In this document: piece by piece, positions 3,391 through 16,410 of the stretch
How positions within the stretch are numbered: the first letter of the stretch is position 1
How the letters are laid out: every line of letters starts with the position of its first letter
Source of the DNA: Actinomycetota bacterium
GTDB taxonomy: Bacteria > Actinomycetota > Thermoleophilia > Gaiellales > Gaiellaceae
Length of the DNA stretch: 16,410 nucleotides
Direction of reading: 5' to 3'
Assembly (NCBI GenBank): GCA_003170995.1
Contig: PMXT01000085.1
Coordinates: forward strand, 1,742-18,151
Translations under genes and position numbers: made by a program
The notes under the pieces: generated by a model
Seen by the model: the letters and a program-made list of their open reading frames with translations, nothing else
The model's database searches: none
Told to the model about the DNA's origin: nothing

Positions 3391-3404
3391 TGGAAGCCTC
3401 CTTA
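3391..3404 (-). promoter_or_regulatory. Strong ribosome binding site of divIVA overlapping the yggT stop
   Basis: On the minus strand the sequence reads TAAGGAGGCTTCCA directly before the divIVA ATG. The first three bases are the yggT stop codon, so the Shine-Dalgarno element grows out of the stop. This fixes the divIVA start and implies coupled translation of the two genes. Confidence 0.85.
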
Positions 3405-3713
3405 TCCGAACTGGGCAAGCACTTCGTACACCATCCGATCGATCAGCCAGAGCGCCAATACGGCAACGATGGGAGATAGATCGATACCTCCGAACGACGG
3501 CAACAAACGCCGAAACAAGCGGAGATACGGATCGCAAGCGTCAAAGAGGAAGCGGCGAACTCGATTTAGATTGCGGTTGTAGGGCATTGGTATCCAGGAG
3601 CTGAGGACGTAGATAAAGATGATCAGCGAGTAAACGGACACGAAGACGTTCACCACCGTCATCACCTGGGAGACGACTGAGCAGAGCATCGTCAAGCTGG
3701 CCTCATTGCCCAT
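3402..3713 (-). CDS. yggT: YggT family membrane protein
   Basis: A 103-residue integral membrane protein of the YggT/YlmG family, encoded next to sepF and divIVA in many Gram-positive bacteria. Two hydrophobic helices are visible at about 12-40 and 79-100. They flank the conserved cytoplasmic segment with NRVRRFLFDACDPYLRLFRR (50-69) and then LPSFGGIDLSPIVA (71-84), the family signature. It is linked genetically to cell division and membrane organisation; no enzymatic activity is known. The start at 3713 has only weak ribosome-binding context. The ATG at codon 9 (3689) is an alternative and would still leave both helices intact. The stop codon forms part of the divIVA ribosome binding site. 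Confidence 0.88.
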   Translation of the reverse strand: MGNEASLTMLCSVVSQVMTVVNVFVSVYSLIIFIYVLSSWIPMPYNRNLNRVRRFLFDACDPYLRLFRRLLPSFGGIDLSPIVAVLALWLIDRMVYEVLAQFG

Positions 3714-3806
3714 ACTGCGTCAATTCGTTCCGCTAGCGCTCGTTCCTACACCGCTGCCGCGACTCTTACCCATGAGTCTTTGGCTTATCTTTAACGGGAG
3801 AAACCC

Positions 3807-4358
3807 CTAGCCCTGATTGAAGAAGCCACGCTCGATCATACGGGCGCGTTCCTCGGCTGAGACCTGTACGTGCTGCGGCGTGAGCAGAAAGACCTTGTCG
3901 GCCACTCGCTGCATCCCGCCGTCGAGCGCGTAGGTGAGCCCGCTGGTGAAGTCGACCAGCCGCTTCGAGAGCTCGCTGTCTACTCCCTGCAGATTGAGGA
4001 TCACCGGGATGCCTTGCTTGAAGTGATCGGCGATCTGCTGAGCGTCATTGAAACCACGCGGGACAACGAGATGAACGCGCGCCGGCGAGACACCGATATC
4101 GGCTGCAACCGCAGGCGGCTCGACACCGCGCAGGCGAGTTGCCGGGCGCAGCGCTACGCCGCGTTGACGTGGGCTCTCGGGCTCACTCCACTCATCTAGC
4201 TCGGCGCTGCGGCGACGCGGCGCCAATCGCCGAACGTTCGGCCGCTCGCTGTGCGTGCGCTCGGCCTCTTCGGTCACGTAGCCGTCCTCGTCCCAGTCTT
4301 CCTCTTCGGCTATGCCGAAATAGACGAGCGTCCGGTTCCAGACGTCCGCGAAACCCAT
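3807..4358 (-). CDS. sepF: Cell division protein SepF
   Basis: SepF anchors FtsZ to the membrane in bacteria without FtsA, including Actinobacteria. The protein has 183 residues. The N-terminal amphipathic membrane-targeting helix is MGFADVWNRTLVYFGI, followed by an acidic then basic, low-complexity linker (17-93). The conserved C-terminal SepF domain spans about 95-167, with VHLVVPRGFNDAQQIAD, GIPVILNL and the VDFTSGLTYALDGGMQRV segment including the Gly pair used in dimer packing. The start at 4358 is chosen because family members begin with this helix; an upstream in-frame extension of 70 codons is not SepF-like. No good Shine-Dalgarno is visible. Its usual upstream neighbour yggS lies 1.2 kb away behind two opposite-strand genes, so sepF needs its own promoter. 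Confidence 0.92.
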   Translation of the reverse strand: MGFADVWNRTLVYFGIAEEEDWDEDGYVTEEAERTHSERPNVRRLAPRRRSAELDEWSEPESPRQRGVALRPATRLRGVEPPAVAADIGVSPARVHLVVPRGFNDAQQIADHFKQGIPVILNLQGVDSELSKRLVDFTSGLTYALDGGMQRVADKVFLLTPQHVQVSAEERARMIERGFFNQG

Positions 4359-4453
4359 ATGACGCGATTGTATCCATCGGCGCGGTTGACATCGCGAAAG
4401 GAGCGATCGAAAGCAAGTTGACTTTATGGCAACACTGTGAGAAAGTCCCCTAC

Positions 4454-4459
4454 TGTCAA
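4454..4459 (-). promoter_or_regulatory. Possible -35 hexamer of a sepF promoter
   Basis: TTGACA, the consensus sigma-70/sigma-A -35 element, lies on the minus strand upstream of sepF. The hexamer 17 bp downstream is AGTGTT, a poor -10, so this is a weak call. sepF does need a promoter here because it is cut off from yggS. Confidence 0.25.
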
Positions 4460-4490
4460 GATCGAGATGAGCCGCCGCAATTTCGAACAA

Positions 4491-4520
4491 GACGGACGGA
4501 AAAGGCCGCCGCAGTCCGTC
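4491..4520. repeat. Inverted repeat, 7-bp perfect arms
   Basis: GACGGAC at 4491-4497 pairs with GTCCGTC at 4514-4520 across a 16-base loop. No T tract follows on either strand, so it is not a standard intrinsic terminator. It could be an operator or an RNA hairpin in a leader. It sits midway between the two divergent genes. Confidence 0.4.
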
Positions 4521-4546
4521 GCCTCCCCGGTTTATTGGTGCCTTCT

Positions 4547-4561
4547 CAAGCAATATGCTTG
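4547..4561. repeat. Compact palindrome CAAGCA-ATA-TGCTTG, candidate operator
   Basis: Six-base perfect arms surround a three-base AT centre, a geometry typical of a dimeric regulator site. It lies about 145 bp upstream of the HTH protein start at 4705. That neighbour could be its own regulator, but nothing in the sequence proves binding. Confidence 0.35.
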
Positions 4562-4704
4562 GGCTCATAGACGCTGCGAAGCCGCGCGAGGTGCTGCTTT
4601 CGGTCGCGTCCGCGCCTCCGTCGATACGAACACTCCCTACGTTCTAGCCTCACTTGCTTTACGCGCCCGGAAGCTCGTAAGCACTACCTGAGGAGCATTG
4701 GCGA

Positions 4705-5073
4705 ATGTCCTCAAAGCACTGGAAGTTGCGACTCGGGCCGACTCACGCCCTGCTCTCCCCCGAGCAACTCCGCGCCGCCCACCTCTTGCACGAGCAAGCG
4801 CGACTGAGTATTCCGGAGCTGGCACGACGGGGCTACGAGCAGTGGGGCTACTCGAGCGCGCATTCGGCCGCCGTGGCGCTGCACAGGCTCTTCCAGCGCT
4901 ACGAATACCCGGCGCGATCTCGAGCCGAAGCGAACAGGTTGCTCGCTTCGAACGAGGAAGGGCGCTGTCGGGGTGAGACGATCTACCGCCGACCCTGTAA
5001 GAGGTCGGCCTTGATCGGGTCGAGTTTTTGCCCGTACCACCAAGCGGACGAGATCGAGCAGGTGGCGCTATAG
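4705..5073 (+). CDS. Small helix-turn-helix protein with C-terminal Cys3His motif
   Basis: A 122-residue protein without an assigned function. Residues 18-66 look like a DNA-binding helix-turn-helix of the resolvase/transposase-like type: LSPEQLRAAHLLHEQ, then LSIPELARRGYEQWGYSS, then AAVALHRLFQRYEY. The C-terminal part has Cys88, Cys98, Cys109 and His112 in the pattern C-x9-C-x10-C-x2-H within RCRGET...RPCKR...GSSFCPYH. This matches the small zinc-binding motif of DUF5763-like proteins and many phage or recombinase accessory proteins. The start is supported by AGGAG at 4691-4695, nine bases upstream. The next gene follows after 10 bp on the same strand, so the two are probably an operon. The pair lies inside an otherwise conserved minus-strand division cluster. 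A transcription regulator is the likeliest role; it might instead be a domesticated element protein. Confidence 0.7.
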   Translation: MSSKHWKLRLGPTHALLSPEQLRAAHLLHEQARLSIPELARRGYEQWGYSSAHSAAVALHRLFQRYEYPARSRAEANRLLASNEEGRCRGETIYRRPCKRSALIGSSFCPYHQADEIEQVAL

Positions 5074-5083
5074 ACTCGCCGCG

Positions 5084-5533
5084 ATGATCGAGAGGCGAGC
5101 ACGCTGGGAACGAGCTCTCTCCTGTACTCGCGAACAGCTCGTACTCGAGATCTGCTCCTCTATGGTCTTCCTCGCGGTAGGAATCGTCCTTCGCCCTCGA
5201 CTTTCGAGCGCTTTGATCGTGCTTGTCGGTCTCGCCGCGGGTTTTTTCGTCCACAGCTGCAATCGCCTCGTTCTGGCTCAGCCACCGCTCGCGCGCCGAG
5301 TCGAGTGGGAACGCGAGCCCAGCTCACCTTCAGCACCGCAGAGCATTTCAGCCGGCTTACTCGTGGCGGTTCTAACCCTGCTGATAATCGCGGCGGTGTA
5401 CATATCGACCGGCGATGCGACGGAAAGCTTGATCGACTTCTTCGGCGGTATGTTCCTGGCTTACGCACTGATTGCAGCCGCTCAGCGCTTCTACCTCGAA
5501 CGCGACTTCGCTCGCCGCGTCTCCGAGCGCTAG
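5084..5533 (+). CDS. Hypothetical four-helix membrane protein
   Basis: A 149-residue integral membrane protein that I do not recognise. The basic N-terminus (1-18) is followed by hydrophobic segments at about 20-36, 41-58, 88-107 and 115-134. The two hairpins are separated by a polar, Glu/Arg/Pro-rich loop at 66-87. The C-terminus is charged. No catalytic motif or known transporter signature is visible. It starts 10 bp after the HTH gene with no evident Shine-Dalgarno, which suggests it depends on translation of that gene. Its stop TAG overlaps the stop of convergent yggS in the palindrome CTAG at 5530-5533. With the HTH protein it may be a regulator/membrane-effector pair; that is inference from adjacency only. 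Confidence 0.65.
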   Translation: MIERRARWERALSCTREQLVLEICSSMVFLAVGIVLRPRLSSALIVLVGLAAGFFVHSCNRLVLAQPPLARRVEWEREPSSPSAPQSISAGLLVAVLTLLIIAAVYISTGDATESLIDFFGGMFLAYALIAAAQRFYLERDFARRVSER

Positions 5534-6135
5534 CTCCAGAGAACGCTGCCGACGCGAATGAAGGTGGCGCCCTCCTCGGCGGCGACGAGGTAGTCCTGGC
5601 TGGTGCCCATCGAGAGCTGCGGGAGATTGAAGCGCTCGGCCAGCTCTCGCAAACGCCGGAAGGAGGGACGCGAGGCCTCAGGGTCGCTCGCGAGCGGCGG
5701 CATGGTCATCAGGCCGCGGACCTCGATGCCAGTTTGACGACAGAGTTCGAGGAAACCGTCCAGCTCTTCGGGAGCGATTCCAGACTTCGTCTCTTCCCCG
5801 GCGAGATTGACCTCGACCAGAGCCGGAATACTCAGCTGCCGGGCTGCCGACTCGCTCGCGAGTGAGTGACAGAGCTCGCAGAGCTCGCTCACGAGCGCCG
5901 TCTTACGGCTTTGCAAGTGACCGATGAAGTGCCAGCGGAAGGCTGCTCCGTAACGCGCCTGCTTCGTTGCCAGAGCCTGAGCGCGATTCTCCCCCACCAC
6001 CTCGATGCCCGCCTCGGCCAGAACTCTCATCTCTTCCAGCGACACGTACTTGGTCGCCGCCACCACGGTGACGCCCGGCCCTACGCACTCCCGGATGCTT
6101 TCATAGCGCTCGCGGATCTCCTCAGCCGATCGCAC
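5530..6135 (-). CDS. yggS: PLP homeostasis protein, YggS/PROSC family
   Basis: A cytoplasmic pyridoxal-5'-phosphate binding protein (YggS, YlmE, PLPBP) that buffers free PLP; it has no known catalytic activity. The PLP lysine is Lys29 in VVAATKYVS. Other signatures are VGENRAQ (48-53), WHFIGHLQSRK (68-78), VEVNLAGEETKSG (107-119), GLMTMPP (141-147) and LSMGTSQDY with IRVGSVLW near the end. The length, 201 residues, is about 25 short of typical members, mainly through a compressed N-terminus and a shortened loop before residue 100. The core barrel is complete. It starts with GTG, preceded by an AGGGGG element seven bases upstream, inside the last codons of pgeF (14-base overlap). In Gram-positives it normally leads straight into sepF; here two opposite-strand genes intervene. 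Confidence 0.92.
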   Translation of the reverse strand: MRSAEEIRERYESIRECVGPGVTVVAATKYVSLEEMRVLAEAGIEVVGENRAQALATKQARYGAAFRWHFIGHLQSRKTALVSELCELCHSLASESAARQLSIPALVEVNLAGEETKSGIAPEELDGFLELCRQTGIEVRGLMTMPPLASDPEASRPSFRRLRELAERFNLPQLSMGTSQDYLVAAEEGATFIRVGSVLWS

Positions 6136-6853
6136 CGATAACCCCCTGACGCCCCGTGTTGCCCTGATCGCGCCGGTGCGAGAAGAAGAGCTCCGGATGG
6201 CAGGACGTACAGATCTCCACCCGCTCTACATGGCTGCACCCGGCGCTCTCGAGCGCCTTCTCGGCGGCCAGCCAGAGGTCGACGTTGCGACCGTGTGCGA
6301 CCTCGCGCCCGAACTGCCGGCGGAAGCGCGCCGCCACCTCTTCCGACACCTCGAAGCAGCAGGGCCCGATCGCCGGACCGAGCGCCGCTCTGATACGGCC
6401 ACGGCCGAGAGCCCGTGCGGCCGATTCGATCACGCCCGCGAGCAAACCGCGCCAGCCGGCATGAACGAGAGCCAGACCCGGCCGTTCGCCGTCCTCGCGC
6501 ACTAGTGCGATCGGAAGACAGTCGGCCGTGACGAGCAGCATCCCCTGCCCGGGCTCCTCGCTCCAGAGGGCGTCGCACTCGGGGAATTCGGCATCCTCGG
6601 AGAGCAGCTCGCTCGGCTCGGCACGTCGTGCCACGGCGCCGTGAAGCTGGCGAGCCATGGTCGCGCGAGCAGGGTCGATCTCCAGCTCGTGACAGAGGCG
6701 CGCCCGGTTCTCGAACACCCTTGCCAGCTCGTCGCCAGTTCGCTTACCGAGGTTGAGCGAGGCGTAGGCTCCCTCGCTGACTCCGCCGAGACGGGTCGAG
6801 AAGGCGACCGTGTACGGGCCCGGCGGTCGCCAGCGATAGAACATTCCCTCCAT
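6122..6853 (-). CDS. pgeF: Peptidoglycan editing factor PgeF (YfiH/YlmD, laccase-domain family)
   Basis: A cytoplasmic enzyme of the DUF152/multicopper-polyphenol-oxidase-like family. In Escherichia coli, PgeF removes mis-incorporated L-serine from UDP-MurNAc-Ser. Homologues also act as purine nucleoside phosphorylase/deaminase. The protein has 243 residues, the normal size. The metal-site triad is present: His71 in RQLHG, Cys112 in TADCLPI and His131 in LVHAGWRG. Other family features are FSTRLGGVSEG near residue 18, LGPAIGPCCFEV (158-169) and the FFSHRRDQGNTGRQ tail. The start codon lies two bases after the upstream tRNA nucleotidyltransferase stop; a second ATG at codon 4 is also possible. 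Overlap with yggS indicates one transcript. Proximity to murA further up the same strand fits a cell-wall precursor role. Confidence 0.92.
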   Translation of the reverse strand: MEGMFYRWRPPGPYTVAFSTRLGGVSEGAYASLNLGKRTGDELARVFENRARLCHELEIDPARATMARQLHGAVARRAEPSELLSEDAEFPECDALWSEEPGQGMLLVTADCLPIALVREDGERPGLALVHAGWRGLLAGVIESAARALGRGRIRAALGPAIGPCCFEVSEEVAARFRRQFGREVAHGRNVDLWLAAEKALESAGCSHVERVEICTSCHPELFFSHRRDQGNTGRQGVIGAIG

Positions 6854-6855
6854 CT

Positions 6856-9417
6856 CTAGGCGCCGTCGGCGATGAGTTCCCTCGCCGCTTCGAGCTCGGT
6901 CTCGCGCCCGGCGAGCGCTCCGTTCAGCTTGCGCCGGCGCAGCTCGGCCAGGATCTCGCCCACTCTCGGCGATTGCTGTAGACCCAACTCAACCAGATCG
7001 CTTCCGTCGATCTCGAGCTCGATCTCACATAGGCGCTCGAAGTACTCCTCGAGGGCCGGTAGATCTCGCATGGCGAGAGCAACTAGTGGCGCGTCTGGAG
7101 CCACCGGCTCGACCAGCGAAACGAGCTCGGCCGGGCTGATCTCCCGTTGCAGACGATCGATCAAGCGCGGCGCGAATACTACCGCGGCCACGATCTTCTC
7201 GATGTCGCGGCGGCGCAGGCGCAGGCGCCCGAGCCAGGAGTAGAGCTCGTACGTCGGCAAGCGGCGGGCAAGCACGGCCAAGCCGGGTCGCCAGCGCGGC
7301 AACTCGGGGGCGTAGCGGTCACGAAGGACGTGAAGGCGCTCGACCAGCGCTGCCGCCTCCTCATCGGCGGCCAGATGCGGATGCACGGCTGCGGCAACAC
7401 CGAGCTCGGCCAGGCGCAGAATCGAGTGTGGTGCGTCCGGCTCGTCGAGGATGGCGATCAACTCGTCGCGCAGGCGTGCCGAGGAGAGATCGTCGAAGAG
7501 CCCCATCTCCACGCAGCTGCGAGCCAGCTGGGCGGCGTGCTCGTCCATGCGAAGGCCGAGCCGGCTCTCGTAGCGAACGGCCCGGAAGATGCGCGTGGGA
7601 TCGTCAACGAAGGAAAGGTTGTGGAGCACACGCAGTCGCCGCTCAGAAATGTCGCGCCGGCCGCCGAAGGGATCGACCAGCCGCCCGAAGTCTTCCGCCT
7701 CGAGCGACACCGCCATCGCGTTGACGGTGAAGTCGCGGCGGAAGAGATCCTCGCGGATGCTGGCGTGCTCGACCGAGGGCAGTGCCGCCGGCGCTTTGTA
7801 GAACTCGGTACGCGTGGTGACCACGTCGACGCGTGCTCCATCGTTGTAGAGGACAACCGCCGTTCCAAACTTCTCGTGCGCGCGGATGCGCCCGCGAAGC
7901 AACCGCGCCAGTTCCCTTGCTAGGCCGATAGCGTCGCCTTCTACGGCGATGTCGATGTCGAAGCCCTTCGTTCCGAGGAGAACGTCGCGCACCGAGCCGC
8001 CCACGAGGTAGATGCCCTCAAAGGCGCCGCCGACCGTCGCTACCGCCTCGCGCAGGGGCGCCAGGGCCTCCAGCTTCTCTAGCTCGTTCTCGAGGTTGGC
8101 CCCACTCGCGCCCGCCGGTTCCTCGCGCAAGCCGAAGGCTGCGAGCAGATCGCCACGAGTAACCACCCCGACGACCTCCCCGTCCTCGATCACGGCGATC
8201 CGCCCGGACGATGAATCGACCAGCATCCGCCGCAATTCGGGAAGCGTGGTGGCAGGTGCACAGACGGCTACCTCGAGTGCCATGATCGCTTTAACCGGCG
8301 CCTGATCGAGGCCGTGCCCAAGTGCCTTGTCCAGATCCTCGCGATTGACGACACCGCGCAGGTGGCCTTCCTCGAGCACGAGGATGCCCGACTGACGGTA
8401 GCGCTGGCAGGTGGCCATAGCCTCGGCAACCTTGGTCTCGGGCTCGACGAAGCGCGGCGGCTTCGACATCACTTCGCTTGCCACGGGCGGCTGCCCAAGT
8501 GCCGAAGCGAGACCCGTCTCGATCGCCTGGCAGGCCCGCTCGAGCGAGAGACGGGTCGAGGCCGAAGCCGCTCCTTGGTGGCCGCCGCCACCGAGCACGG
8601 CGGCCAGCCTGGCGGCATCGAGCTCGGGCACGCGGCTGCGGAGCACGGCGAGGACGCGCCCCTCCATCTCGACCAGGCAGGCGAGCGCGTCACAGTCGGT
8701 CAGATCGACGAGCTTGTGCGCGAGCAGAGCGATGTCTTCGAGATAACGCGGCCAACTGGCGCTTGCGAGGAGGAGCTCGACACCGGCGGCTCGCACGGGC
8801 CGGGCCGAGTCGATCAGCTTGCTCAGAAGCTCTCGCTCCTCCTCCCCGAGGGCGGGACGCAAGAAGTGGCCAAGCTCGTCGACGCGCGCACCGTGACGCA
8901 GGCACCAAGCGATCGCCTCGGCGTCACGCTGCGTGGTCGAGGCGAAAGTGAGCGAGCCGGTGTCCTCGTGGATCCCGAGCGCGAAGGCCGTCGCCTCTAG
9001 CGCACTCACGCCTAGCTCGCGCTCGGCGAGGATCCCGACAAGCGTCGTCGTCAGCGCCCCCTCCTCGGTCAGGTAGAGGTTCTCGGGCTTCACCCACTCC
9101 GGACGGGCGCGCTCGTGGTGATCGAAGACGACCTTCTCGACAGCCGAATCGAGCGCCAGCGACTCCAGCTCGCCGAGGCGCGAAGCATGCACCGTCTCGA
9201 CCGCCACCAGGCGGCGCACTTGTGAGAGATCCAGCGCCCCCGCCTCAACCAGCTCGAGCTCGTCGGCATAGAGACGCACGAACTCGCGCACGTTGCGAGC
9301 CAGGGTCGGCTGCAGGGCCACCACCGAGCCCGGGTAGAGACGCCGCGCGGCCAGCGTCGAGGCGAGCGCATCGAAGTCGGTGTTGGCGTGCGTGGCGATG
9401 ATCGTCTCGGCGCGCAT
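6856..9417 (-). CDS. cca: DHH-CBS-CBS-tRNA nucleotidyltransferase fusion (CCA-adding/poly(A) polymerase type)
   Basis: An 853-residue multidomain protein. The N-terminal DHH phosphoesterase domain has motif I HANTDFDA (His10, Asp14, Asp16), the DHH motif around 99-101 and GIHEDTG (148-154). A DHHA1 module ends at GGGGHQGAAS (276-285). Two CBS domains follow at about 315-370 and 378-430 and probably bind adenine nucleotides. The class II nucleotidyltransferase head starts at about 465 with YLVGGSVRDVLLG and catalytic Asp487/Asp489 (DIDIAVEGD). It also has RRDFTVNAM (560-568) and DDPTRIFRAVRYESRLG (605-621); the rest is the helical tRNA-binding body. It should add or repair the tRNA 3' CCA end, or add A only. 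The DHH half may trim RNA or cleave small nucleotides. The same fusion is known from Aquifex and some other bacteria. The start is followed without alternatives by the DHH domain. Confidence 0.9.
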   Translation of the reverse strand: MRAETIIATHANTDFDALASTLAARRLYPGSVVALQPTLARNVREFVRLYADELELVEAGALDLSQVRRLVAVETVHASRLGELESLALDSAVEKVVFDHHERARPEWVKPENLYLTEEGALTTTLVGILAERELGVSALEATAFALGIHEDTGSLTFASTTQRDAEAIAWCLRHGARVDELGHFLRPALGEEERELLSKLIDSARPVRAAGVELLLASASWPRYLEDIALLAHKLVDLTDCDALACLVEMEGRVLAVLRSRVPELDAARLAAVLGGGGHQGAASASTRLSLERACQAIETGLASALGQPPVASEVMSKPPRFVEPETKVAEAMATCQRYRQSGILVLEEGHLRGVVNREDLDKALGHGLDQAPVKAIMALEVAVCAPATTLPELRRMLVDSSSGRIAVIEDGEVVGVVTRGDLLAAFGLREEPAGASGANLENELEKLEALAPLREAVATVGGAFEGIYLVGGSVRDVLLGTKGFDIDIAVEGDAIGLARELARLLRGRIRAHEKFGTAVVLYNDGARVDVVTTRTEFYKAPAALPSVEHASIREDLFRRDFTVNAMAVSLEAEDFGRLVDPFGGRRDISERRLRVLHNLSFVDDPTRIFRAVRYESRLGLRMDEHAAQLARSCVEMGLFDDLSSARLRDELIAILDEPDAPHSILRLAELGVAAAVHPHLAADEEAAALVERLHVLRDRYAPELPRWRPGLAVLARRLPTYELYSWLGRLRLRRRDIEKIVAAVVFAPRLIDRLQREISPAELVSLVEPVAPDAPLVALAMRDLPALEEYFERLCEIELEIDGSDLVELGLQQSPRVGEILAELRRRKLNGALAGRETELEAARELIADGA

Positions 9418-9455
9418 ACCTTCATTGTGACCGCGAGACGGCCCGAAGGAAGCGT

Positions 9456-10682
9456 TCAGGCGCGATCGCCCGAGCGAACGAGGGTAAGCGCCGCGAGCGA
9501 GACGAGCATCCAGAAGGCCAGATAGGCGAAGGCCGCGCTCGGCGAGACGAGTGTCCAGAGCCCGCCCGCCACGGCGCTGGCGGCGAAGTTGCCGAAGCTC
9601 TGCACGGCGGCCAGCAGGCCGAAGGCCGAGCCGACCACCTCGCTCGGAGCGAGTCCGGCGACAGCCGCGCTCTCGGCGGTCTCGGCAAAGCCGATCCCGA
9701 TTCCCGCGAAGGCGAAGAAGACCGCGATCAGGACTATCGAGGAACTGCTCAGCGCAAGCCCCGCGTAGCCGACGGCGAAGGCCGCCGCTCCCAACCCGAA
9801 CACGAGCATCATGCCGCGGCGATCGCCGAGACGCCCACCGATAAAGCTGGCCACGACGGCCGCCAGGTTGTAGCCGGCATAGAGACCAAGCGCGAGATCG
9901 ACCGCCGTCGTGTGACTGCGCCCGGGTTGGAGCAGACCGGTTGCTCGCAGGATGAGCAGGGTCGCCGCCGCGTTCCCGATCTCGAAGGCCGAGATGGCCA
10001 GGAAGAGCCGGCCCAGGCCACCGCGCAAAACGGGGCGCACCTGAAGACGAAGTGCCCTGCGCTCGCCGCGCTGCGGCCTCGGGATGGCGCGGATCCCGAT
10101 CACGATCGCTAGAGCGGCAAGGAGTCCGGGAACGACGCTGACGAGGATTGCCGTGCGAATGCCGACCCAGGCAACGAGCCCGATCGCCAGGAGCGGCCCG
10201 CCGATCGCACCCAAGTTGTCCATTGCCCGCTCGTAACCGAAAGCGCGTCCGTAAGTTCCCTCCGAGACGGCCTCGGCCAGGAGCGCGCTACGCGAAGGAG
10301 CGCGCAAGCCACGCGCGATCCAGCCGGCTATTCGTAGTGCGCCCGCCTGCCAAACGGCGCTGGCGGCGCCGATCGCAGCGGTGAGAACGGCCGTGACCGT
10401 ATAGCCACCGACAGCCGTCTTGCGCCGCCGCGCCGGGTCGTCGGCGATGGCGCCGCCTACGAGGCGCGATACCCCGCCAAGCCCGTCGGCAAAGCCCTCG
10501 ATCAGGCCGAGCGCCGCGGCCGGTGCACCAAGCGTTGTCGTCAGGAAGCTCGGCAGGAGCGAGGTCGGTATCTCATAGCCGAGGTCGGCAAAGAAGCTGG
10601 CGCCACCGATCGCCGCGACGCTCCTGGTGAACCAGCGCTCTTCTTCGCGCGGGCTGAGCTGCAGGGCGTTCTCGTCGCTCAT
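9456..10682 (-). CDS. MFS transporter
   Basis: A 408-residue major facilitator superfamily permease with about twelve hydrophobic helices. The N-terminal half contains FFADLGYEIPTSLLPSFL (30-47) and the loop 2-3 motif DDPARRRKTAVGGY. It also has the ARGLRAPSRSALLAEAV segment and YGRAFGYERAMDNLGAIGGP (143-162). The second half has the equivalent motif GGRLGDRRG. This pattern resembles a group of uncharacterised actinobacterial MFS proteins annotated as drug or sugar exporters; the substrate cannot be predicted. There is no strong ribosome binding site. It lies 18 bp after ridA and 38 bp before the tRNA nucleotidyltransferase gene, so it is likely part of one transcript. Overall length and helix count look normal. 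Confidence 0.88.
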   Translation of the reverse strand: MSDENALQLSPREEERWFTRSVAAIGGASFFADLGYEIPTSLLPSFLTTTLGAPAAALGLIEGFADGLGGVSRLVGGAIADDPARRRKTAVGGYTVTAVLTAAIGAASAVWQAGALRIAGWIARGLRAPSRSALLAEAVSEGTYGRAFGYERAMDNLGAIGGPLLAIGLVAWVGIRTAILVSVVPGLLAALAIVIGIRAIPRPQRGERRALRLQVRPVLRGGLGRLFLAISAFEIGNAAATLLILRATGLLQPGRSHTTAVDLALGLYAGYNLAAVVASFIGGRLGDRRGMMLVFGLGAAAFAVGYAGLALSSSSIVLIAVFFAFAGIGIGFAETAESAAVAGLAPSEVVGSAFGLLAAVQSFGNFAASAVAGGLWTLVSPSAAFAYLAFWMLVSLAALTLVRSGDRA

Positions 10683-10700
10683 TCGCCTGAAGGGCCGACC

Positions 10701-11093
10701 TTATCTGGCCAGAGCAACCGCGTCGATCTCGACCAGTGCGCCGGAGGGAAGCGCCGCCACCTGCACGGTCGCGCGCGCCGGCGGAGCGCTACCGACGTAC
10801 TCCGAATAGGCGTTGTTCATCGCTGTGAAGTCCGCCAGGTCGGCCAGGAAGACGGTCGTCTTGAGCAGGCTACCCAACCCGCTTCCAGCCTCCTCCAGGA
10901 TCGCCTTGATGTTCTCGAACACCTGGCGGGTTTGTGCCTCGATGCTCTTGCCCTCGAGCGTGGTCTCGCCGGGAGCGAGTCCGAGTTGGCCGGAGATGAA
11001 GACGAGACCGCCGGCAGAGATCGCCTGGTTGTAGGGCGCCCCTTGGAAGGGCGCGGGCGCGGCCTCGGTACGGACAACCTGCTTCCCTTTCAC
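10701..11093 (-). CDS. ridA: RidA family reactive-intermediate deaminase
   Basis: A small cytoplasmic enzyme, trimeric in known members, that hydrolyses 2-aminoacrylate and other enamine/imine by-products of PLP enzymes. The protein has 130 residues, the family norm. Visible signatures are PYNQAISAGGLVFISGQL (20-37), the NIKAILEEAGSGL helix (61-73), and ARATVQVAALPSGALVEIDA (106-125) with the active-site Arg107 and Glu122. Tyr21 of the pocket is present, so it should be an active imine deaminase. It starts with GTG, overlapping the stop of the HisB-like gene as GTGA, with a GGGAGAGGA element just upstream; this implies translational coupling. Its neighbours suggest no single pathway, although the aminotransferase at the right edge and YggS also concern PLP chemistry. 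Confidence 0.93.
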   Translation of the reverse strand: MKGKQVVRTEAAPAPFQGAPYNQAISAGGLVFISGQLGLAPGETTLEGKSIEAQTRQVFENIKAILEEAGSGLGSLLKTTVFLADLADFTAMNNAYSEYVGSAPPARATVQVAALPSGALVEIDAVALAR

Positions 11094-11623
11094 GTCCTCT
11101 CCCCCCTCACACTGCAGGCAGTCTCGAGCGCCACTCCGAGTGCCTTGAAGATGGCATCGAGCACGTGCTGCGTATCGCTGCCCTCGACGAGACGAACATG
11201 AAGCACGATCCCAGTGGCCAGCGCCAGCTCGCGCAGAAAGCGAACGGCCATGTCGCCGGCGAGCCCGCCTATATGGGCGTCCGAGAGATCGAAGTTGGAG
11301 AGCAGGCGGGGGTCGTCGCTCAGGTCGAGAGCAACGTGTGCGAGCGCCTCGGCCGAGGGTATGTAGCCGGCGCCGTGGCCGAGCGCGTCTTCGGCCCGCA
11401 GTAGCTTGGCCAGCGCCGCCCCGAGAGCGCGCCCGGAAGAGACAACCTGCGCCTCGGCCGAATCGGAAGCGATCGCGAGCGTGAGATCGAAATGCCCGTA
11501 GCGAGCTACCTGCTCGAGCAGGCCGTCGAGCACCGGGAGACCCGTCTCGACGTGAGCGTTTCCCGCGCCGGATGGCACCAGGCGAACGGTACTGCGAGTC
11601 GCGGCGGTCTCATCCGAGGCCAT
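11090..11623 (-). CDS. HisB-fold protein with degenerate metal site (probable pseudoenzyme)
   Basis: A 177-residue homologue of imidazoleglycerol-phosphate dehydratase (usual length about 195). Shared landmarks are TGLPVLDGLLEQVARYGHFDL (from residue 27), AEALAHVALDLS (91-102), ATGIVLHVRLVEG (136-148) and DAIFKALGVALETA (156-169). The manganese ligands are mostly lost. The DHM histidine is Gly34. The HHxxED motif has become QVVSSGRALG, with no ligand. In the second HHxxE motif only His153 remains, in TQHVLD. His142 is retained. Asp in PMDEALA is Ala. With six of the eight usual ligands absent or changed, dehydratase activity is very unlikely. The reading frame is clean and translation is coupled to ridA, so the gene is probably functional, perhaps structural or regulatory. 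A true HisB is presumably encoded elsewhere. It follows murA by 94 bp. Confidence 0.75.
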   Translation of the reverse strand: MASDETAATRSTVRLVPSGAGNAHVETGLPVLDGLLEQVARYGHFDLTLAIASDSAEAQVVSSGRALGAALAKLLRAEDALGHGAGYIPSAEALAHVALDLSDDPRLLSNFDLSDAHIGGLAGDMAVRFLRELALATGIVLHVRLVEGSDTQHVLDAIFKALGVALETACSVRGERT

Positions 11624-11717
11624 AACGGCACCCTAGCGGAGAACTCGAATCGAAACGAAGCACTCCATCGCTCGGCCGTGTTCGGCGGTGCGACGGGTCG
11701 TCATTCCGCTTCGAGCT

Positions 11718-13031
11718 CTAGCTGGAGATTCGCTCGATGCAAGCCCCGAGCGAGCGCAGGCGCTCGTCGATGCGCTCGTAGCCTCGGTCGATCTGACCGA
11801 TGTTCCCGATCGTCGAGACACCGTCGGCGCAGAGGCTTGCGATCAGCATCGCCATGCCGGCGCGAATGTCCGGGCTCTCCATGCGGTCGCCGACGAGCGG
11901 GGCGGGCCCGGTCACGACTGCTCTGTGCGGATCGCAGAGGATGATTCGAGCGCCCATCCCGACCAGCTTGTCGACGAAGAAGAGCCTGCTCTCGAACATC
12001 TTCTCGAAGATCAGCACGGTACCCCGCGCCTGCGTGGCTACGACCAACGCGATCGAGGTCAGGTCTGCGGGGAACTGTGGCCAGGGCCCATCCTCGATCT
12101 TGGGAATCGCTCCGCCCAAATCGTCCTGAATCACGAGCTCCTGCCCATCGGGCACTCGCACGCTGCAGTCGTCCGCTTCGATCCGCACGCCCAACCGCTG
12201 CAGGTGGGGCAGAATCGGGCGTAGATCTTCGCCGCTGCAGCCCTCGATGGTCAGCTCGCCACGAGTGACCGCGCCCAGCCCGATGAAGCTGGCGATCTCG
12301 ATGTGGTCGGACGAGATGCGGTGCTCGCCACCCGAGAGCTCCGGTACGCCGCGGATGCGCAGGAGATTGGAGCCAAGGCCCTCGATCTCGGCTCCGAGCG
12401 AGACGAGGAATCGGCACAGGTCCTGAACGTGCGGCTCGCCGGCCGCGTTGCCGATGACCGTCTCGCCTTCGGCCAGCACGGCCGCCATGATCACATTCTC
12501 GGTTCCCATTACGCTCGGCTCGTCGAGGAAGAGATGGCAGCCGCGCAGCTTGCGAACGCTCATTGCGTAATCGCTCCCAACCTCGATTTGAACGCCGAGA
12601 TCGGCAAAGGCCTTGACGTGCGTGTCGAGCCGGCGGCGACCGATCACGTCACCGCCTGGAGGCGGGATCTTGACCGCACCGGAACGAGCGAGGAGCGGCC
12701 CGGCGAGCAGGAAGGAAGCGCGGATGCGGCGGCAGAGCTCGGAGTCGAGATCGGTGTTGGTGATCTCGCTGGCCTCGATACGTACCTCGTTCGGGCCGGT
12801 CCACTCGATATTGACGCCGGCATGCGCGATCAGCCCGATCATTGACTCGACGTCGAGAATGCGCGGCACGTTGCGCAGCGTTACGGGCTCGGAGGTGAGC
12901 AGGGAGGCGGCCAGGATGGGCAGGGCGGCGTTCTTGTTCCCGGACGCGTGGACGGTGCCGGAAAGGGAGTGTCCGCCTTCGATGACGAAGGACTCGCGGT
13001 GTAGAGCTTCGGCGACTGCAGCGTCGGTCAT
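11718..13031 (-). CDS. murA: UDP-N-acetylglucosamine 1-carboxyvinyltransferase, Asp-type active site
   Basis: Transfers enolpyruvate from phosphoenolpyruvate to UDP-GlcNAc, the first committed step of peptidoglycan synthesis, in the cytoplasm. The protein has 437 residues from the chosen start. The UDP-GlcNAc/PEP site includes Lys33-Asn34 in SGNKNAALP, Arg104 in RRIRAS, Asp323 in FPADL and Arg390 in DIRAGMA; the C-terminal [16 protein letters not shown] is typical. The catalytic loop, usually PGGCxIGxRP, reads [10 protein letters not shown]: Asp128 replaces the fosfomycin-reactive Cys115 of Escherichia coli, and the following Pro is Arg. The start at 13031 ([10 protein letters not shown]) is chosen by family length. 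Upstream in-frame starts at 13067, 13130 and GTG 13169 would add 12-46 unconserved residues, and no candidate has a clear Shine-Dalgarno. Likely first gene of a transcript running through yggS. Confidence 0.9.
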
Positions 13032-13283
13032 GATCTCGGAGCTCGCCGCTTGGGCGAGCGCGGTCATCGTAGCGGCCGGGTCAGCTGGAGGTGTGACCGT
13101 TCGGCGCACCCGTGTCTGGTACCGCGACATGGCCGCGTTGGATTGGTTCGCCCGACCGATACTGGGCACCGAGCCTGTTCGTACACACTTCGCCGAGTCG
13201 GTACCGAGACATGCTCCAGCGGGACGATCACGGCGGGCACCTCGACATAGCCCGGCTCAACAGGGCGAGCGAGCGAACGCGTT

Positions 13284-13874
13284 ATGCTGGCGTCGATGAC
13301 GATCACACGCGAGCAAGCCTGGGTGACGCTGACCGAGTACACGAAGAGCGAGGCGCTACGACGCCACGCGCTCGCGGTCGAGGCGGCAGTCAGGGCCTAC
13401 GCAGAAAAGTTCAGCGAGGACGAGGAGCTGTGGGGTATCGCCGGGCTCCTGCACGACTTCGACTACGAGATCCACCCCACACTCGACGAGCACCCGCAGG
13501 CCGGCGCCCCGATCCTGCGTGAGCAGGGCTATCCCGAGGAGATCGTGCTGGCCATCCTCTCCCACGCCAGCCACACCGGCGTCCCGCGCGAGACGCCGCT
13601 GCAGAAGACGATCTTCGCCTGTGACGAGCTGGCCGGTTTCGTGCACGCCTGCGGGCTGGTGCGCCCGGACGGAATCGACACGCTCGCGCCCAAGTCGGTG
13701 CGCAAGAAGCTGAAGCAGCCCTCATTCGCCGCCAGAGTCAATCGCGACGAGGTCTACCAGGGCGCCCAGGAGCTGGGTGTCGATCTGGACGAGCACATCG
13801 CCTTCGTGATCGCAGCGCTCAGGCCTATCGCCGCTGAGCTCGGGCTCCGGACGGGCGCCGACGCGAACTCGTAG
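13284..13874 (+). CDS. HD-domain metal-dependent hydrolase
   Basis: A 196-residue HD/HDIG-type phosphohydrolase-like protein. The metal-binding residues visible are His28 in RRHALAVEA, His57-Asp58 in GLLHDFDYE, His70 in DEHPQAGAPIL, the SHASH cluster (93-97) and Asp114 in FACDELAGF. Related small HD proteins are annotated as hydrolases or phosphohydrolases with unknown substrate. The start may be ATG 13284 or ATG 13296 (MTITREQAW); the second fits the family better, and neither has a clear ribosome binding site. It is divergent from murA. Its 3' end (13771-13874) lies inside a 117-bp direct repeat whose other copy, at 15488-15604, ends the gap before the aminotransferase. The stop here is four codons earlier than in the other copy (ANS-stop versus ANPKFLV-stop). 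Confidence 0.82.
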   Translation: MLASMTITREQAWVTLTEYTKSEALRRHALAVEAAVRAYAEKFSEDEELWGIAGLLHDFDYEIHPTLDEHPQAGAPILREQGYPEEIVLAILSHASHTGVPRETPLQKTIFACDELAGFVHACGLVRPDGIDTLAPKSVRKKLKQPSFAARVNRDEVYQGAQELGVDLDEHIAFVIAALRPIAAELGLRTGADANS

Positions 13875-13887
13875 TTCCTGATCTAGG
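13771..13887 (+). repeat. Direct repeat copy A (3' end of HD gene)
   Basis: These 117 bp align without gaps to 15488-15604 with 12 mismatches (about 90% identity), offset 1717 bp. The copy spans the last 33 codons and stop of the HD gene plus 13 following bases. Similarity stops sharply at both ends. Confidence 0.95.
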
Positions 13888-13938
13888 GAACACTCCGCTT
13901 GTCTTCGGAACTCGATCTACCGACAGACCGAAGCCGAA

Positions 13939-13956
13939 CTCTCATCAACCTCTCAT
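13939..13956 (+). promoter_or_regulatory. Tandem CTCTCAT repeat with 11-bp period, candidate response-regulator site
   Basis: CTCTCAT occurs at 13939-13945 and again at 13950-13956, spaced exactly one helical turn. This is the arrangement bound by OmpR/PhoB-type regulators, and each half differs from the Escherichia coli Pho half-site CTGTCAT by one base. It lies about 220 bp upstream of the RCC1 gene start. A weak TAGGCT -10-like hexamer lies at 13978-13983. Confidence 0.35.
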
Positions 13957-13973
13957 GTTGCTTCTTTCGGGGG

Positions 13974-13992
13974 CTAGTAGGCTCCTTACTAG
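13974..13992. repeat. Hairpin/palindrome CTAGTA...TACTAG
   Basis: Perfect 6-bp arms (13974-13979 and 13987-13992) can extend by a G-T and a G-C pair, giving an 8-bp RNA stem with a CTC loop. No T tract follows, so it is not a clear terminator. It may be an operator or a leader hairpin for the downstream gene. Confidence 0.4.
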
Positions 13993-14174
13993 ACGGTCGC
14001 TCTGCTTCAACCGCTTCATAGACACGATTGAGCGGTAACAACGGTTGGGTGGACGGATGATCAACTCGGGACGGTTACCGATACTCAGCTTCGCCCCTAC
14101 GGCCTCCCGGCCTCCGCTAGAAGGAATGATCTGTGATCTCAGACAGGTTCCGCGATCTCGGGAGGTCAGAGGCG

Positions 14175-15362
14175 ATGTTCAGTCACTCGGCGCTCTTCCG
14201 CGCACGCATCATTACCGGAGTCGTTCTGCTCGGCGCGACGATGGCCCTGGGGCTTGCCGGTGGCATTCCCTCAAACGCAACGGCGCAGGTTGTCGGCCTG
14301 CAATCCGTTAGCGCCACCCAGGTCAGCTCCGGCCGGATCCACACCTGTGCCCTCCTCTCCAACCACAGCGTCGAGTGTTGGGGTTGGAACATGGTCGGCG
14401 ACCCCGATGCCAGCATCCCCGTTGTATTGACCGGCCGCTCATTGACTCCGGTTCCGGTCGGCGGCATCACAAACGCCACCGCCGTGAGCGCCGGCTACGA
14501 TCACTCCTGCGCCCTGCTCTCCGACAATAGGGTCGAGTGCTGGGGCAGTGACGAACGCGGATACAGTCTTGACCCGGTTTTGGTCAGCGGCATCACGAAC
14601 GCCACCGCCGTGAGTGCCGGCGAGCAGGGCACGTGCGCCCTTCTCTCCAATCATAGGATCGAATGTTGGGGCGCAGGCCTGTTCGGTGGGCTCGGTAACG
14701 GCACGACTCAAGACAGCGCGACCCCGGTATTCGTCCGCGGCATCATGCATGCCACCCAGATCAGCTCCGGCCGGCTCCACACCTGTGCCCTCCTCTCCAA
14801 CCGTAGGATCGAGTGCTGGGGCTATAACCGCGATGGCGAACTCGGCAACGGCAAGAGGGTCACCTCCCGGTCGGGGGTTGCTACCCCGGTTCGAGTCAAA
14901 GGTATTACGAACGCAACTCAGATCAGCGCCGGCGGCGCTCACACCTGCGCTCTTCTCTCCAACCATAGGATCAAGTGCTGGGGCCTTAACGGCGTTGGCC
15001 AGCTCGGCAACGGCAAGAAGACGAGAAGCCTGATACCAGTTCCGGCAAGCGGAATCACGAATGCCACCCAGGTCAGCGCCGGTGGCAACCATACCTGTGC
15101 CCTCCTCTCCAACCACAAGGTCAAGTGCTGGGGCTACAACGGGGAAGGCGAGCTCGGTAACCTCACGAACGAACGCGGCGCGACGCCCGTATTCGTTCGC
15201 GGAATCACGAATGCCACCAAGGTCAGCGCAGGCGGCGCACGCACCTGCGCTCTACTGTCCAACCACAAGGTCAAGTGCTGGGGCTACAACGGTTACGGAC
15301 AGCTCGGGAACGGCACAGAAGACGACAGTGCGACCCCGGTTGGCGTGGTAGGCCTTCGCTAA
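14175..15362 (+). CDS. Secreted RCC1-repeat beta-propeller protein
   Basis: A 395-residue protein. Residues 1-38 form a signal peptide: basic MFSHSALFRAR, hydrophobic core IITGVVLLGATMALGLAGG, and a likely cleavage after NATA. The rest is seven tandem repeats of about 42-54 residues with the consensus TNATQVSAGGxHTCALLSNH, then xxKCWGYNGxGxLGNG and SATPVxVxGI. This is the RCC1/BLIP-II-type propeller, and seven repeats make a complete ring. Every repeat keeps two cysteines nine to ten residues apart (HTCAL and the C of CWG), suggesting a disulfide per blade outside the cell. The start at 14175 is supported by GGGAGG nine bases upstream and by the signal peptide. No enzymatic or anchoring domain is present, so it is probably released or periplasmic, with a binding role. 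The gene lies between copies of a 117-bp direct repeat. Confidence 0.85.
   Translation: MFSHSALFRARIITGVVLLGATMALGLAGGIPSNATAQVVGLQSVSATQVSSGRIHTCALLSNHSVECWGWNMVGDPDASIPVVLTGRSLTPVPVGGITNATAVSAGYDHSCALLSDNRVECWGSDERGYSLDPVLVSGITNATAVSAGEQGTCALLSNHRIECWGAGLFGGLGNGTTQDSATPVFVRGIMHATQISSGRLHTCALLSNRRIECWGYNRDGELGNGKRVTSRSGVATPVRVKGITNATQISAGGAHTCALLSNHRIKCWGLNGVGQLGNGKKTRSLIPVPASGITNATQVSAGGNHTCALLSNHKVKCWGYNGEGELGNLTNERGATPVFVRGITNATKVSAGGARTCALLSNHKVKCWGYNGYGQLGNGTEDDSATPVGVVGLR
14312..15360 (+). repeat. Seven intragenic tandem repeats (126-162 bp units)
   Basis: The ACCTGYGCYCT...TGCTGGGGC core recurs, starting at about 14343, 14505, 14631, 14781, 14943, 15093 and 15243. The spacings are 162, 126, 150, 162, 150 and 150 bp, all multiples of three. 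Cores of units 4-7 are nearly identical in DNA, which points to internal duplication or gene conversion. Confidence 0.85.
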
Positions 15363-15487
15363 AACTGCTTATCGAGTCCCACCTGGGCCTCGCGCTCGAC
15401 TAGATCCGGCTACGTTCCTGAACGCTCGCTCGGGTGAGCGGCCGGGGCATTTCCGCGTTCGGATTGGCGCAGCATTCGAAAATCGCT

Positions 15488-15604
15488 AACTGGGCGTCGG
15501 TCTGGATGAACACATCGCCTTCGTGATCGCGGCGTTCAGGCCTATCGCCGCTGAGCTCGGGCTCCGGACCGGCGCCGACGCGAACCCGAAATTCCTGGTC
15601 TAGG
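15488..15604 (+). repeat. Direct repeat copy B (orphan 3' fragment of an HD gene)
   Basis: Gapless partner of 13771-13887. It reads LGVGLDEHIAFVIAAFRPI and onward to ANPKFLV-stop, with an in-frame TAA immediately before it and no start codon context, so it is a non-expressed gene remnant. Its TAG stop (15601-15603) overlaps the aminotransferase stop in the palindrome CTAG. Confidence 0.95.
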
Positions 15605-16410
15605 CGAGCGCCTCGAGCAGCCGCTCGATGTCTTCCTCGCTCGTCCACCAGCCGCAGGAGGCGCGGATCAGGTTCCTTCCCGGGATGTCGCGGACGACGA
15701 CGTTGCGTTTGAACAGGCGCCTTACCGTCTCGGTCGGATCGCTTTCGGCCCGCCAGCTCACGAGCGTTCCCCGGCCCGGAGCCGAGACGACGTCGAAGCG
15801 CTCCGCCAGGGCCGAGCGGCAGCGCTCGCTCATCTCGGCGGCGCGCTCGAGGGCCCACTCGGGCCGCCCGTCGAGAGCGGCGAGAAGACCAACGAGCGAA
15901 GCCGGCGCGAGCCAATGCGAGTCGAAGCGGGCGGCGCCCGCTCGCGGCTCGAACTTCCCACTCGGCTCGAAGCTCGTCTGGGCGTAGTGGCTCGGCTGGG
16001 CGACACGCAGCCGCTCGGGATCGCGGACGACGAGCGCTCCGACCGTGTCCGGCCCGCAGAGCCACTTCTGCGCCGAGACGGTGAGGAAGTCGAGCCCGGC
16101 GGCGTCGACCGGGAGCGCCCCGACCGCCTGGGCTCCGTCCACGAGTACGGGAATCCCGCTTCGCGCTCGCAATTCGGCCACGGGTAAAACGCGCCCGTCC
16201 GTCCAGAGCACCTGCGAGAGCGCGAGCAACCTGGTGCGCGGCGTGAGGGCGGCCAAAATCGCCTCGGTATCCGGCCTGGCGACGACAACGCGGGCACCCG
16301 AGGCATGAAGCGGCCCGAGTAGACCGAAGTGCTCGTCGGTGGTGGTCACGACCTCATCCCCGGGCGAGAGGTCGAGCCCGGCCAACACGATGTTGCAGCC
16401 GTCGGTGGTC
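15600..16410 (-). CDS. Class V aminotransferase (PLP-dependent), N-terminus beyond right edge
   Basis: The C-terminal 269 codons of a fold-type I PLP enzyme of the class V (NifS/isopenicillin N epimerase/EgtE-like) group. The peptide enters the window at TTDGCNIVLAGLDLSPGDEV, the canonical segment before the TTxxEH motif. DGAQAVGALPVD carries the Asp that contacts the PLP pyridine nitrogen. The Schiff-base lysine is in SAQKWLCGP (codon at 16065-16067). The C-terminal domain ends with IRASCGWWTSEEDIERLLEAL, where the Arg of the IRAS motif binds the substrate carboxylate. It could be a cysteine desulfurase-like lyase, an epimerase or an aminotransferase; without the N-terminus the substrate is open. 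The GTG at 16386-16388 is an internal Val codon, not a start. The stop overlaps repeat copy B. Confidence 0.88.
   Translation of the reverse strand, partial: TTDGCNIVLAGLDLSPGDEVVTTTDEHFGLLGPLHASGARVVVARPDTEAILAALTPRTRLLALSQVLWTDGRVLPVAELRARSGIPVLVDGAQAVGALPVDAAGLDFLTVSAQKWLCGPDTVGALVVRDPERLRVAQPSHYAQTSFEPSGKFEPRAGAARFDSHWLAPASLVGLLAALDGRPEWALERAAEMSERCRSALAERFDVVSAPGRGTLVSWRAESDPTETVRRLFKRNVVVRDIPGRNLIRASCGWWTSEEDIERLLEALA

What the first reader, a model, noticed from the sequence alone, without database searches (positions are those of the whole stretch)
13771..15604. RCC1 gene sits in a 1717-bp unit bounded by a duplicated 117-bp gene 3' end
The 3' end of the HD hydrolase gene plus 13 bp (13771-13887) is repeated without gaps at 15488-15604, with 12 mismatches. 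Everything between the copies is the RCC1 gene and its flanks. Duplicating a gene's 3' end at both borders is how many integrative elements insert, since they supply a replacement gene end. No integrase is present, so this may be a minimal cassette, a deletion remnant, or insertion by homologous recombination with a related locus. The inserted secreted repeat protein would be the cargo.
Basis: partly seen in the sequence, partly recalled or inferred. Interest (0 to 1): 0.8.

Follow-up and report, generated by a model that had tools for sequence, protein, structure and literature searches.

The report
Tandem-duplication scar overwritten by RCC1 gene
The repeated 117-bp gene end around the RCC1-like gene is best read as the visible remainder of an old local duplication of a neighbouring aminotransferase gene, most of whose spare copy was replaced by the RCC1 gene; it is probably ordinary genome remodelling rather than a mobile element.

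Summary
The repeat is real: 13771-13887 and 15488-15604, 117 bp, no gaps, 12 mismatches. None of five congeners carries RCC1 at this site. In two, the HD and aminotransferase (AT) genes abut; the other three carry a different gene there. The proposed mechanism, an integrative element supplying a replacement gene end, is not supported: no integrase was found, 0 of 59 family loci have an HD-end duplication of 60 bp or more, and the insert is not only RCC1 plus flanks. Directly left of copy 2, about 15420-15489 is a decayed piece of the AT gene's 5' end (codons ~7-33, correct strand), joined to the HD 3' end at a short homology (CTGGG). That joint is expected of a ~1.15-kb tandem duplication from HD codon 163/164 through AT to about AT codon 8. 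Copy 1 still holds the AT stop codon (CTAG). RCC1, behind a leader shared with an ABC-transporter locus, then replaced nearly all of the spare AT copy. Against this: the AT relic is more diverged than the HD repeat, so later conversion must be assumed. Side finding: a many-copy RCC1 family, two copies inside tRNA-Lys 3'-end repeat arrays.

The parts
13284..13874 (+). HD-domain hydrolase gene, intact; its functional 3' end is copy 1
   Evidence: ORF; Pfam HD PF01966 E 4.6e-10
13771..13887 (+). copy 1 of the repeat: HD 3' end plus 13 bp, still holding the AT stop codon (CTAG 13883-13886)
13888..13939 (.). unassigned 52 bp; no match to AT, and only a 19-bp hit at E 0.43 in fetched genus DNA
13940..14141 (+). 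leader module, 84% identical to G000:C74:3367-3567, where it ends at the presumed start codon (read by eye) of a solute-binding protein gene
   Evidence: query 13985-14145 matched only these 2 places in 103 family genomes at E 0.001 (candidates per genome capped at 8)
14142..15425 (+). RCC1 module: own ribosome-binding region, CDS, and a 3' flank shared with other places in the genus; right edge uncertain by about 5 bp
   Evidence: 5' part shared with an RCC1 gene and remnants; 3' flank 15343-15429 shared
14175..15362 (+). RCC1-repeat protein, 395 aa, hydrophobic N-terminus (by eye), 7 CALLS...CWG motifs
   Evidence: nearest solved structure by sequence UVR8
15420..15489 (-). relic of the aminotransferase 5' end (codons about 7-33), decayed; its match runs on to about 15496 through the joint
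   Evidence: 59/79 identical to L033, 56/78 to own AT; without any base of copy 2 (15420-15487) 0 of 2000 random windows score as high against own AT or L033
15490..15496 (.). novel joint AT-5' | HD-3' at short homology CTGGG(C/T)G
15488..15604 (+). copy 2 of the repeat: HD 3' end, frame open to a TAG that shares CTAG (15600-15603) with the AT stop
15600..16410 (-). class V aminotransferase (AT), 3' three quarters; the rest is on contig C12
   Evidence: (C12:2-271, residues 1-90), 23-bp overlap

Best explanation
The 117-bp repeat is what remains visible of a larger tandem duplication. Step 1 (inferred from the joint): illegitimate recombination at a 5-7 bp homology between HD codon ~164 and AT codon ~8 duplicated about 1.15 kb (HD 3' end plus the AT gene minus its first codons), giving HD - AT' - HD 3' end - AT, with AT' lacking its start. 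Step 2 (inferred): an RCC1 gene, behind a leader also found before a solute-binding protein gene, entered the HD/AT' junction, a slot where many relatives carry extra genes. AT' was lost except for its stop codon (in copy 1) and ~70 bp of its 5' part (left of copy 2). Step 3 (inferred): the HD copies were partly homogenised by recombination while the AT relic decayed. Shown: the repeat, the AT relic and its joint to copy 2, empty and otherwise-filled sites in congeners. The RCC1 protein itself is a secreted-looking propeller with seven repeat motifs, probably a binding protein (inference).
For: AT relic: query 15363-15500 aligns at 15420-15500 to AT codons 6.7-32.7 of L033, 59/79 identical; z over shuffles 8.7-13.6 for five congeners, 8.8 for own AT; 0, 1, 2, 0, 0, 0 of 1500 random own-genome windows score as high for L033, L034, L035, L036, L037, own. 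That query includes 13 bases of copy 2; without them (15420-15487) the counts are 0, 89, 1, 2, 3, 0 of 2000, i.e. clear for own AT, L033, L035-L037, weak for L034. The relic has AT's strand and abuts copy 2 where HD homology starts, at CTGGG. Copy 1 keeps CTAG, the shared HD/AT stop seen in 8 of 59 loci, L035 among them. Empty sites: gap 0 in L034, -4 in L035. The HD copies differ at 8 of 90 bases but by 13-23 from the five congeners, so both look native to this lineage. At the 3 mismatch sites where all five congeners agree, all side with copy 1; of 4 further sites with a majority state also found in a copy, 2 side with each (the last four mismatches lie in the poorly alignable tail and were left out): copy 2 carries the unusual changes, as a non-coding fragment would. 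The RCC1 3' module ends where the AT relic begins.
Against: The AT relic is more diverged from own AT (22 of 78) than copy 2 from copy 1 (12 of 117), Fisher p = 0.002; one simultaneous duplication should give similar values. Conversion of the HD copies is an added assumption, supported only by mismatches crowding at the edges (10 of 58 against 2 of 59, p = 0.016; boundaries chosen after seeing the data). The relic is slightly closer to L033's AT than to own AT. With copy 2's bases left out, L034's AT matches little better than chance (89 of 2000). No AT remnant is seen at the left side (13884-14000, z at most 1.7). No intermediate (HD-AT'-HD 3'-AT) was found: 1 of 40 family intervals of 60 bp or more shows any same-strand AT-like DNA, a 26-bp match in L042. 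The relic is short (~70 bp).
Confidence: 0.62

Rival explanations
1. [quoted passage not shown]
For: The AT relic is closer to L033's AT than to own AT and more diverged than the HD copies. An insertion coupled with loss of resident DNA and 3-10 bp homology at the illegitimate joint is the described pattern (PMC3240628, passages).
Against: The two HD copies are nearer each other than to any of five congeners, so no foreign HD end is evident. It needs a donor with the same joint; no second 3'-end-only HD match was seen in the other genomes searched (101 genomes).
Confidence: 0.18
2. Site-specific integration of a small, integrase-less element into the HD 3' end, with copy 1 the element-borne replacement end and copy 2 the displaced native end, as e14 does in icd.
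For: A repeated gene 3' end at both borders and an empty site in relatives. Some other RCC1 genes of the genus lie between tRNA-Lys 3'-end repeats, in one case near an integrase gene.
Against: No integrase recognised in the unit. No identical core at the left edge: 5 mismatches in the first 23 bases. 0 of 59 HD+AT loci have an HD-end duplication of 60 bp or more although 32 have gaps over 350 bp. Copy 1, not copy 2, looks native-like. The AT 5' relic is unexplained.
Confidence: 0.1
3. Insertion at a staggered break with a 117-bp fill-in that duplicated the target (long target-site duplication by end joining).
For: A mosaic insert containing a leader similar to C74.
Against: It does not explain the AT 5' relic. 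Ku was not found in the own MAG (84% complete) and in only 2 of 6 genus genomes.
Confidence: 0.06

Closest known systems
Tandem duplication formed at short homologies in bacteria, with later divergence or loss of one copy (general knowledge)
   Same: novel joint of downstream end to upstream end at a few matching bases; direct repeat of the unit's ends; unduplicated site in relatives
   Different: only the two ends of the unit survive; the middle of one copy was replaced by an unrelated gene
Prophage e14 in E. coli icd
   Same: direct repeat of a gene's 3' end at both borders (163-bp displaced icd end for e14; PMC6379469, passages)
   Different: no integrase found, 1.7-kb unit, no recurrent use of the site, and a neighbouring-gene relic at one border
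Homology-facilitated illegitimate recombination
   Same: insertion with a comparable deletion and 3-10 bp homology at the illegitimate joint (PMC3240628, passages)
   Different: does not by itself create the AT-5'/HD-3' joint or the repeated HD end
RCC1/UVR8-type beta-propeller proteins
   Same: RCC1 repeats above Pfam cut-offs; sequence match to UVR8 chains, best E 8.4e-70
   Different: N-terminal hydrophobic leader and a Cys pair in each repeat motif; function in this bacterium untested

Membership tests
tandem-duplication relic | joint between the far end and the near end of the duplicated unit | tested here: met
   AT codons ~7-33 abut HD 3' copy at 15490
tandem-duplication relic | short homology or repeat at the joint | tested here: met
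   CTGGG shared in own DNA; CTGGGCG shared by AT and HD of L033
tandem-duplication relic | unduplicated state in relatives | tested here: met
   L034, L035 empty; one HD and one AT match at E 1e-8 in each of the 59 loci with both
tandem-duplication relic | all duplicated parts equally diverged | tested here: not met
   12/117 against 22/78, p 0.002; later conversion between HD copies would have to be assumed
tandem-duplication relic | remnant of AT 3' coding part beside copy 1 | tested here: inconclusive
   only the AT stop codon region remains; 13884-14000 shows z at most 1.7
e14/icd-type integrative element | gene 3' end repeated at both borders | tested here: met
e14/icd-type integrative element | integrase in the element | tested here: not met
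   RCC1 is the only Pfam family found between the copies; six other frames of 88-225 aa overlapping the insert have no Pfam match; mobilisation in trans not excluded
e14/icd-type integrative element | identical core at the inner-gene edge of the repeat | tested here: inconclusive
   5 mismatches in first 23 bp; later mutation possible
e14/icd-type integrative element | same site used by other elements | tested here: not met
   0 of 59 loci; second HD matches in G027, G039, G074 are an N-terminal piece, a full gene and an N-terminal piece
RCC1 repeat protein | RCC1 repeats over curated cut-off, seven repeat motifs | tested here: met
   PF13540, PF00415, PF25390; 7 motifs; fold not predicted here

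The most novel reading that the evidence does not exclude
RCC1 genes of this genus travel as cargo of a genus-specific array system bounded by tRNA-Lys 3'-end repeats and served by a tyrosine integrase in trans; the window's copy is an off-target insertion that captured a protein-gene 3' end instead of a tRNA end, and the AT piece was picked up during that event.
Probability: 0.06. Interest if true: 0.6.

Novelty: new member of a known kind. Interest (0 to 1): 0.3.

Why it matters
It shows how a border repeat that looks like an attachment site can instead be the ends of a lost tandem duplicate, and it offers a tell-tale to check: a piece of the neighbouring gene's far end at the inner border. 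It also documents a convergent-gene junction that serves as a slot for gene gain across a bacterial family. It draws attention to a many-copy RCC1 propeller family in uncultured Gaiellaceae-related bacteria, partly housed in tRNA-Lys repeat arrays, which deserves its own study.

Tried and rejected
Rejected: assembly artefact (copies differ at 12 bases and are joined by unique DNA; no read data were available, so this is inference). Rejected: leader 13940-14141 as a strongly folded RNA (z -0.34) or a known Rfam family (no hit at gathering score; one chance-level hit, E 2.4). Rejected: tRNA in the window. Rejected: HD end as a recurrent att site. Staggered-break end joining was weakened by the patchy occurrence of Ku. 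Two loci have short HD-end repeats that I did not count as duplications of this kind: L060 (31 bp, 97%) and L088 (42 bp, 83%). L081's gap of -218 reflects frame-based stop finding, not a real overlap of that size; it is kept among the 19 gaps of 60 bp or less. In the DNA alignment the L145 row was given on the wrong strand, so that row says nothing. Literature searches found background only; PMC11111574 and PMC9218822 (passages) were not used for a claim.

Full report
What was claimed and what is there. It matches nowhere else in the own genome at E 0.001, a 1.91-Mb MAG in 200 contigs, 84% complete. The gene order is MurA-like (-; Pfam EPSP_synthase, the name MurA is recalled), HD hydrolase (+), RCC1-repeat protein (+), class V aminotransferase, AT (-). 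The contig ends inside AT; the rest of AT lies on contig C12, with a 23-bp overlap.

Relatives. The HD gene was found in 91 of 101 genomes searched, the own one included, and 80 loci with organism names were fetched (the best 80 of 267). Five of these are congeners. None of the 80 loci shows an RCC1 match within the fetched flanks at E 1e-8. In 59 loci both HD and AT are present and the gap between them was measured: 60 bp or less in 19, 61-350 bp in 8, over 350 bp in 32. In 8 of the 59 the two stop codons share the four bases CTAG. Congener L035 is one of these; L034 has gap 0. The other three congeners hold a PEP-mutase-like gene (L033) or a ~140-aa protein (L036: no Pfam match; L037: LrgB below cut-off). 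For the wider family I took 30 ORFs by hand from 28 of the 32 loci with gaps over 350 bp (L052, L075, L082 and L093 left out; in L037, L038, L046, L059 and L088 I did not take the longest ORF). The most frequent family is glyoxalase (13 of 30), then dienelactone hydrolase (3), GFA (2), and PEP mutase, SnoaL, DUF6941, methyltransferase, rhodanese and IS200-type transposase (1 each).

What the repeat is. In copy 2 the HD frame stays open to a TAG that shares CTAG (15600-15603) with the AT stop, which is the empty-site structure. Copy 1 has an earlier TAG (13872-13874) but keeps the same CTAG at 13883-13886. So the duplicated stretch included the AT stop codon, not only the HD end. The decisive piece lies left of copy 2. 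A word-size-7 comparison of the margins with fetched genus DNA gave, for 15430-15495, hits at E 2e-5 and 0.003 to L033 7428-7492 (74%) and L035 6583-6625 (77%), which is the 5' end of AT on the matching strand (one other hit, 17 bp, E 0.43). Local alignment of 15363-15500 places 15420-15500 on AT codons ~7-33 in L033, L036 and L037 (15421 as first base in the last two), 15417-15496 in L035, and a longer, gappier stretch in L034; z 8.7-13.6 over shuffles. Own AT gives 56 of 78 identical, z 8.8. Of 1500 random 138-bp windows from other parts of the own genome, 0, 1, 2, 0, 0 and 0 reached the observed score for L033, L034, L035, L036, L037 and own AT. Because that query includes the first bases of copy 2, I repeated the test with 15420-15487 only: z 8.4 for own AT, and 0, 89, 1, 2, 3 and 0 of 2000 random 68-bp windows of either strand in the same order. 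The match is therefore clear for own AT and four congeners and not for L034, whose AT is the most diverged from own among the four compared in this stretch (58 of 76 identical). HD homology begins at CTGGG (15490), the very bases with which the AT match ends. AT-5'-end joined to HD-3'-end at a short homology is the joint expected of a tandem duplication whose unit ran from HD codon 163/164 through AT to about AT codon 8, about 1.15 kb.

The insert is a mosaic. 13888-13939 is unassigned. 13940-14141 is 84% identical to a stretch before the presumed start codon of a solute-binding protein gene on contig C74 (start read by eye; two undetermined bases follow). Only these two copies were found in 103 family genomes (candidates per genome capped); the leader does not fold better than shuffles. 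From 14142/14146 on the DNA is RCC1 module, its ribosome-binding region and leader peptide shared with an RCC1 gene in G005 and with short remnants in G000, G001, G002 and G004, in G001 beside a PLP-dependent decarboxylase gene. The RCC1 3' flank to about 15425 is shared with the flank of an RCC1 gene in G002 and with some other intergenic places. There the AT relic takes over. So RCC1 replaced AT' from just after its stop to about codon 33.

Difficulties. The AT relic is 28% different from own AT, while copy 2 is 10% different from copy 1 (p 0.002). If they were duplicated together, the HD copies must have been homogenised later. Mismatches do crowd at the repeat's edges (10 of 58 against 2 of 59, p 0.016), but the edges were chosen after seeing the data. 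A foreign source of the AT piece is the main rival. No intermediate is known. The HD copies differ from each other by 8 of 90 bases and from the five congeners by 13-23, which fits an origin within this lineage.

The integrative-element reading. Here the inner-gene edge is not an identical core, no integrase was found, no relative examined repeats the pattern, and the neighbouring gene's far end sits at the border. I therefore do not file the locus under that kind.

The RCC1 family. In the genus, 6 of 6 genomes carry RCC1-family matches (7-25 each), against 2 of 19 other genomes of the same family, both weak (E 4e-6 and 5e-5); but 13 of 16 genomes from other families of the order do have matches, down to E 3.6e-42, so the family is not confined to the genus. 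32 genus loci can be counted by hand (hits on one contig within 4 kb merged; the N-terminal-only remnants in G001 and G004 and one 64-residue hit in G004 left out). Five of the 32 lie within 1 kb of a tRNA-Lys 3' part: G004 C14 and G005 C26 beside the full ~170-bp repeat with its conserved tail, G000 C33, C71 and C90 beside the tRNA part alone, C90's being a complete tRNA-Lys gene. The tail part occurs in 6 of 6 genus genomes and weakly in 1 of 97 other family genomes (candidates per genome capped at 8, so counts are lower bounds). In G005 C26 a tyrosine integrase gene ends about 23 bp before one repeat, and an RCC1 gene lies between the next two. This may be how some RCC1 genes spread, but 27 of 32 RCC1 loci show no such repeat within 1 kb and nothing ties it to the window's HD-end repeat.

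Verdict. Observation right; empty site right; mechanism most likely a tandem duplication whose spare AT copy was overwritten by RCC1 (0.62). Ordinary in kind, instructive in detail.

Noticed in passing
L256 (G004:C14) 5411-15048; L261 (G005:C26) 3294-11351; L251, L252, L162: Arrays of ~170-bp repeats made of the tRNA-Lys 3' part plus a conserved tail, spaced about 1-5 kb, with single genes or small groups between them, including RCC1 genes in L256 and L261; a tyrosine integrase gene ends next to one repeat in G005. The tail is nearly confined to this genus within its family.
   Followed up: partly
G000-G005: RCC1-repeat family in many copies in each of the six genus genomes but found in only 2 of 19 other genomes of the family, weakly; present again in 13 of 16 genomes of other families of the order.
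   Followed up: partly
window 13940-14141 and L148 1501-1701: A 202-bp leader, 84% identical, stands before two unrelated genes (RCC1 and a solute-binding protein) in the same genome; possible shared regulation.
   Followed up: partly
window 13874-15600 equivalents in 59 loci: The convergent HD/AT junction is a variable slot across the family, most often holding a glyoxalase-family gene among the occupants scanned (13 of 30).
   Followed up: partly
L145 1501-1593, L146 1501-1593, L147 1501-1567, L149 1501-1587: RCC1-type 5' ends without an RCC1 match beside them, in L145 next to a PLP-dependent decarboxylase gene (Pfam) and, by the look of the protein start, also in L146 and L149: likely remnants of deleted RCC1 genes.
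   Followed up: no
L164 5789-5970 and 11033-11213; L162 857-959 and 1951-2095: Intergenic repeats that look strongly palindromic by eye, some ending in a tRNA-like GGTTCGAATCC; nature unknown.
   Followed up: no
L189 14693-14756, L034 8937-9013, L153, L154: The RCC1 3' flank (about 15374-15431) also occurs in places where I saw no RCC1 gene beside it; contexts not examined in detail.
   Followed up: no
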